64,000 nucleotides of DNA, taken from positions 1-64,000 of the forward strand of contig CALXZO010000007.1 of assembly GCA_944393265.1 (NCBI GenBank). The letters are read 5' to 3'. Every line of letters starts with the position of its first letter. Position 1 is the first letter of the stretch. The translations under genes were made by a program, and so were the position numbers. A model generated the notes under the pieces. The model worked only from the letters and a program-made list of their open reading frames with translations, made no database searches and had not been told where the DNA came from. This stretch comes from an uncultured Clostridia bacterium. GTDB lineage: Bacteria; Bacillota; Clostridia; TANB77; UBA1234. This document shows, in pieces, positions 57,541-60,218 of this stretch.

Positions 57541-57605
57541 GGCAAAACTGCCTAAAATAACATATCCGGTGTCGGTAACTGTAAAAATCTATCAAACAAT
57601 TTGAG
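57541..57605 (+). promoter_or_regulatory. CRISPR leader with anchoring motif and inverted repeat piece
   Basis: It ends with ATTTGAG (57599-57605) directly before the first repeat, the conserved type II-A leader-anchoring motif known from streptococci. CCTAAAATAACATA (57551-57564) is the exact complement of the repeat's internal segment. Confidence 0.75.
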
Positions 57606-60218
57606 GTTTTAGAGGTATGTTATTTTAGGTAGTAACGAAACATAAGAAAGTTATTGAATTATATGATACTTGTTTTAGAGGTATGTTATTTTAGGTAGTA
57701 ACGAAACACTTGCTGATGGTCTTAGTGCCGATGCGCTGTTTTAGAGGTATGTTATTTTAGGTAGTAACGAAACCTTGTTCTTTTCGGATTCGGTCTTCAT
57801 GTTGTTTTAGAGGTATGTTATTTTAGGTAGTAACGAAACGAGGTATATCGATTGATATATTCGGATTAGGTTTTAGAGGTATGTTATTTTAGGTAGTAAC
57901 GAAACCTTCTTCATTCATTGCTAAAACTTCGTCAAGTTTTAGAGGTATGTTATTTTAGGTAGTAACGAAACTATGACTAGGTGGGCAACAAAAGACCCAT
58001 GTGTTTTAGAGGTATGTTATTTTAGGTAGTAACGAAACCTGTTTATATACCTATTAATCATATTGATTGTTTTAGAGGTATGTTATTTTAGGTAGTAACG
58101 AAACTACCGATAACGTTCGCTCCTATGATATCCCGTTTTAGAGGTATGTTATTTTAGGTAGTAACGAAACTAAATCAGATAAACGACGCATATCAGATGC
58201 GGTTTTAGAGGTATGTTATTTTAGGTAGTAACGAAACATCAGTTTTACCGATTTCTTCAAAACCAGAGTTTTAGAGGTATGTTATTTTAGGTAGTAACGA
58301 AACTGACTCCTAATCTTCTAACATTCTGATTATGTTTTAGAGGTATGTTATTTTAGGTAGTAACGAAACTATATACGCCAACATTACCAGTTTTAAAGGG
58401 TTTTAGAGGTATGTTATTTTAGGTAGTAACGAAACACATTACGTATCTTATTTCTTAAATCTAAAGTTTTAGAGGTATGTTATTTTAGGTAGTAACGAAA
58501 CGATTTTCCTTATTTTGGCATTAACGCTTTTGTTTTAGAGGTATGTTATTTTAGGTAGTAACGAAACATACTTGCAACAACATCATCTAAATTATATGTT
58601 TTAGAGGTATGTTATTTTAGGTAGTAACGAAACTAGGCTCTAATGATACATCTCCCATATCTCGTTTTAGAGGTATGTTATTTTAGGTAGTAACGAAACT
58701 CGGAAAAGTAATGATTAATGCTTCATACTGTTTTAGAGGTATGTTATTTTAGGTAGTAACGAAACTCTATAGTCATAATAACCCAAATTAATCGCGTTTT
58801 AGAGGTATGTTATTTTAGGTAGTAACGAAACACTGGTATTAGAAGATTTTAAAAAAAATAAGTTTTAGAGGTATGTTATTTTAGGTAGTAACGAAACTTA
58901 AATTAAGTTGGAATGATGTTTCCTTTAGTTTTAGAGGTATGTTATTTTAGGTAGTAACGAAACTGGATCTTATAAGTTATGAACTTATCGATTAGTTTTA
59001 GAGGTATGTTATTTTAGGTAGTAACGAAACTGAGTCGATTTTAACTTCCGTTAGTACTATGTTTTAGAGGTATGTTATTTTAGGTAGTAACGAAACAAAT
59101 TTCCTCCAGCAATTCAATCAATTTTAGTTTTAGAGGTATGTTATTTTAGGTAGTAACGAAACTTGTTAATTTGTGGAAGTTTAAATCTGGAGGTTTTAGA
59201 GGTATGTTATTTTAGGTAGTAACGAAACTGCAGGTGAAGCTCAAGAAAATTTAGGTATGTTTTAGAGGTATGTTATTTTAGGTAGTAACGAAACTGCTCA
59301 AATGCAAATGAGGACCGATGTTTAGTTTTAGAGGTATGTTATTTTAGGTAGTAACGAAACCTAGGTAAAAATTTGGCGAATTGGAGTATAGTTTTAGAGG
59401 TATGTTATTTTAGGTAGTAACGAAACGTTGGTTTGCTGATAAAATGATTAGAACTTGTTTTAGAGGTATGTTATTTTAGGTAGTAACGAAACTCGCCAGA
59501 ATCTCCGCCTGGCGTATCACCGGTTTTAGAGGTATGTTATTTTAGGTAGTAACGAAACCAAATAACGTATCGATAGATTCAGCATCTAGTTTTAGAGGTA
59601 TGTTATTTTAGGTAGTAACGAAACATGCATATAAAGGTGCTATGGTCGGTATGGGTTTTAGAGGTATGTTATTTTAGGTAGTAACGAAACAAAAAAAGGA
59701 GGGTTTTTAGATGGGAGCTAGTTTTAGAGGTATGTTATTTTAGGTAGTAACGAAACATAAACAAAATTGCGTTTATGAGACTGATTGTTTTAGAGGTATG
59801 TTATTTTAGGTAGTAACGAAACGTATCAAATAGCGAACGTACGCATAAAAGTGTTTTAGAGGTATGTTATTTTAGGTAGTAACGAAACATTAACTTGTCC
59901 ACGATTTGAACAATCTTTGTTTTAGAGGTATGTTATTTTAGGTAGTAACGAAACCGTACTCGTTCTGCATGTTATCCCACTTCAGTTTTAGAGGTATGTT
60001 ATTTTAGGTAGTAACGAAACAAGATTTAAACTTGCCGTGAGAACCACTCTGTTTTAGAGGTATGTTATTTTAGGTAGTAACGAAACTTTGCTTACTATGT
60101 ATATAGAAGAGTTACTGTTTTAGAGGTATGTTATTTTAGGTAGTAACGAAACATTTAATGATGAAGAAAAAATAGGGATATAGTTTTAGAGGTATGTTAT
60201 TTTAGGTAGTAACGAAAC
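57606..60218 (+). CRISPR. CRISPR array: 40 repeats of 36 bp, 39 spacers
   Basis: The repeat begins GTTTTAGAGGTATG and ends GTAGTAACGAAAC. Repeats start at 57606, 57672, 57738, 57804 and so on, to 60183. Periods are 66 bases, 67 in three cases (spacers 30 or 31 bases). I found all repeats identical, including the last. Spacers are all different. New spacers enter at the 57606 end. Confidence 0.97.

What the first reader, a model, noticed from the sequence alone, without database searches (positions are those of the whole stretch)
57541..57641. CRISPR leader carries an inverted copy of the repeat core
CCTAAAATAACATA at 57551-57564 is exactly complementary to TATGTTATTTTAGG inside every repeat and resembles the tracrRNA anti-repeat. 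A transcript through the leader could fold back on the first repeat, or the segment could be a degenerate second anti-repeat affecting the newest crRNA or leader transcription.
Basis: seen in the sequence. Interest (0 to 1): 0.6.

Follow-up and report, generated by a model that had tools for sequence, protein, structure and literature searches.

The report
CRISPR-Cas9 leader-repeat RNA hairpin
The stretch just before this CRISPR array is a mirror-complement of the array's own repeat, so the transcript can fold back and mask the first repeat; relatives keep this fold even when their repeats change, and it matches a mechanism already described for Cas9 systems.

Summary
In the 65-nt leader between csn2 and repeat 1 of a type II-A CRISPR-Cas9 locus, 57551-57564 is an exact 14-nt complement of the repeat. 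The full pairing is 20 contiguous bp (57547-57566 with 57614-57633, two G:U), far beyond chance. Across 32 non-identical II-A loci, leaders pair much better with their own repeat than with reassigned repeats (mean -21.0 versus -14.4 kcal/mol; 0 of 20,000 permutations). Compensatory changes occur, and G:U pairs exceed expectation (23 versus 12.7). This supports selection for an RNA helix on the pre-crRNA strand. Promoter-like sequence lies upstream of the helix in most loci, here inside csn2. Three orphan arrays keep that csn2 fragment although csn2 itself is lost. The best explanation is the leader-repeat hairpin reported by Liao et al. 2022 for II-A systems: the leader masks repeat 1 from tracrRNA, suppressing an extraneous crRNA and favouring the newest spacer's crRNA. 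It is not a second tracrRNA. This is a well-supported new member of a known kind; function was not tested here. Possibly new details are a conserved GTCNNTAAC mini-hairpin at the junction and the array promoter embedded in csn2.

The parts
57547..57566 (+). Leader strand of helix H1 (ACTGCCTAAAATAACATATC), complementary to the repeat core; contains the reported 14-mer 57551-57564
   Evidence: covariation
57614..57633 (+). Repeat 1 strand of helix H1 (GGTATGTTATTTTAGGTAGT), the same segment that pairs with the tracrRNA anti-repeat
57567..57581 (+). Mini-hairpin CGGT-GTCGGTA-ACTG at the inner end of H1; stem conserved with one compensatory pair, loop GTCNNTAAC nearly invariant in 13 near relatives
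57582..57605 (+). 3' part of the leader: possible short helix H2 with the 5' end of repeat 1 (weak in this window), ending in the II-A leader-end motif ATTTGAG (57599-57605)
   Evidence: ATTTGAG motif in PMC5382924
57606..57641 (+). Repeat 1 (the 'extra' repeat), GTTTTAGAGGTATGTTATTTTAGGTAGTAACGAAAC
57606..60218 (+). CRISPR array, 40 identical 36-nt repeats, 39 spacers of 30-31 nt
57413..57441 (+). Putative array promoter TTGAAT-17-TATAAT inside the csn2 coding sequence; a start just downstream would put the whole leader in the transcript
51586..51700 (-). tracrRNA (approximate ends): anti-repeat about 51699-51667, then nexus-like and terminator hairpins with a U tract
   Evidence: ends inferred from sequence
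51745..55713 (+). cas9 (1322 aa, type II)
55685..56553 (+). cas1, in three frames (two apparent frameshifts)
56543..56863 (+). cas2
56860..57540 (+). csn2 (makes the locus type II-A)

Best explanation
It is the leader half of a leader-repeat RNA hairpin of a type II-A CRISPR-Cas9 locus. The pre-crRNA starts upstream, probably inside csn2, so its 5' part contains 57547-57566. As soon as repeat 1 is transcribed, this segment pairs with it over 20 bp and covers the part of the repeat that tracrRNA would bind. This would stop repeat 1 from making a useless extraneous crRNA guided by leader sequence, and would leave tracrRNA, RNase III and Cas9 to repeat 2 and hence the crRNA of the newest spacer. 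Shown here: the complementarity, its conservation, its covariation with the repeat and its RNA character. Inferred: transcription from the csn2-internal promoter, competition with tracrRNA, and the effect on crRNA levels. The effects are inferred by transfer from published II-A work.
For: (1) 20-bp helix, -28.0 kcal/mol for leader:repeat against -34.1 for tracrRNA:repeat; fold z = -5.1. (2) 32 non-identical II-A leader/array pairs: own-repeat duplex mean -21.0, reassigned -14.4 +/- 0.6, 0 of 20,000 permutations reach it. For H1 alone -16.8 versus -10.4, 0 of 20,000, own repeat ranked first for 19 of 32 leaders. (3) Compensatory changes: window CCTAAAATAACATA/TATGTTATTTTAGG, L005 TCTAAAATAACACA/TGTGTTATTTTAGA, L032 ATCTAAAACAACAC/GTGTTGTTTTAGAT, L025 CTATAAAATGACAC/GTGTAATTTTATAG. 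In 13 near relatives 93.8% of cells pair, against 37-44% when slid by 1-3 columns. (4) 23 of 56 non-Watson-Crick cells are G:U where 12.7 are expected, P = 0.0008, as expected for RNA of the array strand. (5) Promoter-like sequence upstream of H1 in most loci, including perfect TTGACA-17-TATAAT in L018 and L023; orphan arrays L055, L059 and L061 keep TTGAAT-17-TATAAT although csn2 is truncated or decayed. [quoted passage not shown] 2022, as described in PMC12080349 and PMC13187072).
Against: No transcript data; the promoter is a consensus match whose conservation is confounded by the conserved Csn2 motif ELYKYSLYN. tracrRNA binds the repeat more tightly than the leader does, so masking must rely on cis and co-transcriptional advantage. 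Equilibrium folds of longer transcripts place the leader on repeat 2 or 3 rather than 1, because all copies are identical. A few loci (L020, L066, L021) show weak pairing. The loci are related, so permutation counts are not fully independent. The original Liao et al. paper could not be read here.
Confidence: 0.87

Rival explanations
1. Degenerate second anti-repeat or tracrRNA-like RNA that acts in trans on crRNAs or guides Cas9 itself.
For: 17 of 20 nt identical to the tracrRNA anti-repeat segment.
Against: No tracrRNA-like tail or terminator follows; the array follows at once. The segment matches the repeat better than the tracrRNA does at the position where they differ, and in relatives it tracks the local repeat.
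Confidence: 0.03
2. A DNA-level inverted repeat that helps Cas1-Cas2-Csn2 recognise the leader end during spacer acquisition, with RNA pairing a by-product.
For: The leader end ATTTGAG is a known acquisition element (PMC5382924), and an inverted repeat could form a cruciform.
Against: Published acquisition needs only about the last 10 nt of the leader plus the first repeat (PMC5382924), not the region 40-60 nt upstream. The G:U excess on one strand favours RNA. Spacing to the repeat varies between loci.
Confidence: 0.06
3. The leader helix regulates transcription (attenuation of read-through into the array) rather than crRNA choice.
For: A strong helix close to the start of the transcript.
Against: No U tract follows repeat 1 or the hairpin, and no terminator-like site was found.
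Confidence: 0.03
4. Chance complementarity in AT-rich sequence.
For: Low G+C region; most core bases are A or T.
Against: Shuffle, random-window, permutation and covariation tests all reject it.
Confidence: 0.005

Closest known systems
Type II-A leader-repeat hairpin (Liao et al. 2022, Nat Microbiol, doi 10.1038/s41564-022-01074-3; described in PMC12080349 and PMC13187072)
   Same: Transcribed leader pairs with the extra (first) repeat of a II-A array, over the tracrRNA-binding segment; same locus layout
   Different: Helix here is long and nearly perfect (20 bp). A conserved mini-hairpin lies at its inner end in this clade. The putative promoter is inside csn2. No function tested; I could not compare structure details with the original paper, which is not held
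Leader-repeat hairpin of type VI (Cas13b) systems (PMC13187072)
   Same: Leader masks the first repeat to block extraneous crRNA
   Different: No tracrRNA; Cas13b does the processing; a different effector
II-A leader-end motif ATTTGAG, Group 1 (PMC5382924)
   Same: This leader ends in ATTTGAG next to GTTT
   Different: That motif serves acquisition and is a separate element, downstream of H1
tracrRNA anti-repeat of the same locus
   Same: Pairs with the same repeat segment; 17 of 20 nt identical
   Different: Encoded on the other strand upstream of cas9, with nexus and terminator; has one G:U where the leader pairs perfectly

Membership tests
Type II-A CRISPR-Cas locus | cas9, cas1, cas2 and csn2 with a 36-nt repeat array and tracrRNA | tested here: met
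   (cas1 frameshifted)
II-A leader-repeat hairpin | Leader complementary to the first repeat over the tracrRNA-binding segment, beyond chance | tested here: met
II-A leader-repeat hairpin | Pairing conserved and covarying with each locus's own repeat | tested here: met
II-A leader-repeat hairpin | Leader segment lies inside the pre-crRNA transcript | tested here: inconclusive
   Promoter-like site upstream, retained in orphan arrays; no transcript data
II-A leader-repeat hairpin | Breaking it raises ecrRNA or lowers crRNA 1; compensatory change restores it | not testable with these tools
   needs RNA experiments
tracrRNA (second copy) | Anti-repeat followed by nexus and terminator hairpins, separate transcript | tested here: not met
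   Sequence after 57566 has only a 4-bp mini-hairpin and then repeat 1; no terminator

The most novel reading that the evidence does not exclude
In this clade of gut Clostridia the II-A leader is a composite RNA element. Helix H1 masks the repeat core, a conserved GTCNNTAAC mini-hairpin sits at a three-way junction, and a short H2 masks the 5' end of repeat 1 with ATTTGAG in or near its loop. The mini-hairpin would bind a protein (Cas9, RNase III or Csn2) or set the choice between repeat 1 and repeat 2. The whole unit, with a promoter inside csn2, moves as a cassette that seeds orphan arrays.
Probability: 0.2. Interest if true: 0.5.

Novelty: new member of a known kind. Interest (0 to 1): 0.33.

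Why it matters
It gives independent comparative evidence, by swapping leaders and repeats across 32 loci, that II-A leaders evolve to mask their own first repeat. This extends a mechanism described in Streptococcus pyogenes to uncultured gut Clostridia. It also shows that array design or transplantation in Cas9 systems should keep leader and repeat matched.

Tried and rejected
Rfam on the locus gave only a sub-threshold repeat hit and no leader RNA family. Cas9-based search of viral contigs found nothing; the leader has no match in plasmids. Genus and family relatives lack csn2, so comparisons came from the order, class and phylum. The MFE preference of the leader for repeat 2 or 3 was set aside because all repeats are identical and the choice depends on how much sequence is folded. 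A simple 50:50 test of G:U against A:C was replaced by one that accounts for base composition. H2 is significant over the whole set (P = 5e-5) but weak in GTTTTAG-type repeats and not consistent between predictions in this window. I looked for a Streptococcus pyogenes-type array in two plasmids with Cas9 hits as a positive control; neither holds one. Reading Liao et al. 2022 failed, as it is not held.

Full report
What is there. The window holds a type II-A CRISPR-Cas9 locus: tracrRNA on the minus strand (about 51700-51586), cas9 (51745-55713), cas1 (in three frames), cas2, csn2 (stop at 57540), a 65-nt leader and an array of 40 identical 36-nt repeats at 57606-60218. The reported 14-mer is at 57551-57564, exactly as stated, and its reverse complement is in every repeat.

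The pairing is larger than reported. 57547-57566 pairs over 20 contiguous base pairs, two of them G:U, with 57614-57633 of repeat 1. Leader plus repeat 1 folds at -30.4 kcal/mol against -14.9 +/- 3.0 for shuffles. None of 20,000 random 65-mers from the window has more than 11 nt of exact complementarity.

Is it conserved, and as what? I gathered II-A loci by Csn2 from the order, class and phylum of the window's genome and from named genome contigs, plus Listeria and phage-collection records. They gave 32 non-identical leader/array pairs. Each leader was paired with its own repeat and with all others. Own pairs average -21.0 kcal/mol and reassigned pairs -14.4 +/- 0.6; none of 20,000 permutations reaches the observed mean. 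Using only the upstream leader and repeat positions 10-36, the values are -16.8 versus -10.4, again 0 of 20,000, and 19 of 32 leaders prefer their own repeat to every other. The loci are related, so these counts are not fully independent, but the aligned cores show compensatory changes directly. L032 has ATCTAAAACAACAC against GTGTTGTTTTAGAT, L025 has CTATAAAATGACAC against GTGTAATTTTATAG, and L047 has CTAAAACAATATAA against TTATGTTGTTTTAG. In 13 near relatives 93.8% of cells pair; sliding the partner by 1-3 columns drops this to 37-44%. Where pairs are not Watson-Crick, G:U is in excess over a composition-based expectation (23 versus 12.7, P = 0.0008). That points to RNA of the array strand rather than a DNA inverted repeat.

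Is it transcribed? The best promoter match near the window's leader is TTGAAT-17-TATAAT at 57413-57441, inside csn2. The same site sits at the same distance in most near relatives, but there it also encodes the conserved Csn2 motif ELYKYSLYN, so conservation alone proves little. More telling are orphan arrays L055, L059 and L061. L055 keeps only the last 46 residues of csn2, and L059/L061 only a decayed fragment. All three retain TTGAAT-17-TATAAT at a similar distance. In other clades a strong promoter lies right upstream of the pairing segment, for example perfect TTGACA-17-TATAAT in L018 and L023. Transcription through the leader is therefore likely but not shown.

How it probably works. tracrRNA binds the same segment of the repeat (-34.1 kcal/mol) as the leader does (-28.0). 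The leader is in cis and made first, so it can cover repeat 1 before tracrRNA arrives. In a II-A array repeat 1 would otherwise give a crRNA whose guide is leader sequence. [quoted passage not shown] 2022, as summarised in PMC12080349 and PMC13187072). From memory, the model species was S. pyogenes; the paper itself is not held. The present locus fits that kind on every defining feature I could test; transcription remains inconclusive and function untested.

What it is not. It is not a second tracrRNA: after the anti-repeat-like segment there is only a 4-bp mini-hairpin and then the array. It follows the repeat rather than the tracrRNA where the two differ.

What may be new. Between the helix and the leader end, near relatives share a mini-hairpin with stem CGG/CCG (CAG/CTG in L007 and L010, CGGT/ACTG in the window) and a loop GTCNNTAAC that is the best conserved part of the upstream leader. 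A short second helix with the 5' end of repeat 1 is supported over the whole set but is weak in this window. I did not find either described in the papers I could read; that is not proof of novelty.

Verdict. A real, conserved, covarying leader-repeat RNA hairpin; a new member of a known kind, of moderate to low surprise.

Noticed in passing
window 55685-56526: cas1 is split over three reading frames (55685-55819, 55821-55925, 55927-56526 against Listeria Cas1): two apparent frameshifts, so either the acquisition gene is dead or the metagenome assembly has errors. All 40 repeats are nevertheless identical.
   Followed up: partly
L055, L059, L061 (upstream of the arrays): Orphan II-A arrays without an intact csn2 that retain a 3' csn2 fragment starting just upstream of the TTGAAT-17-TATAAT site, as if promoter, leader and array were copied as one unit. 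Two of them (L059, L061) are on different contigs of one genome.
   Followed up: partly
window 57567-57581 and same place in L003, L005, L006, L007, L009, L010, L040, L042, L047, L055, L059, L061: Mini-hairpin with a nearly invariant GTCNNTAAC loop in the leader, better conserved than the repeat-complementary segment itself; function unknown.
   Followed up: partly
window 51745-57540 versus genus and family relatives: csn2 was found in none of the 12 other genomes of the genus and family, but in scattered members of another family of the order, which suggests horizontal gain or repeated loss.
   Followed up: no
window 61467-61832: Fragment of a transposase/integrase (rve_3) on the minus strand about 1.2 kb after the array.
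   Followed up: no
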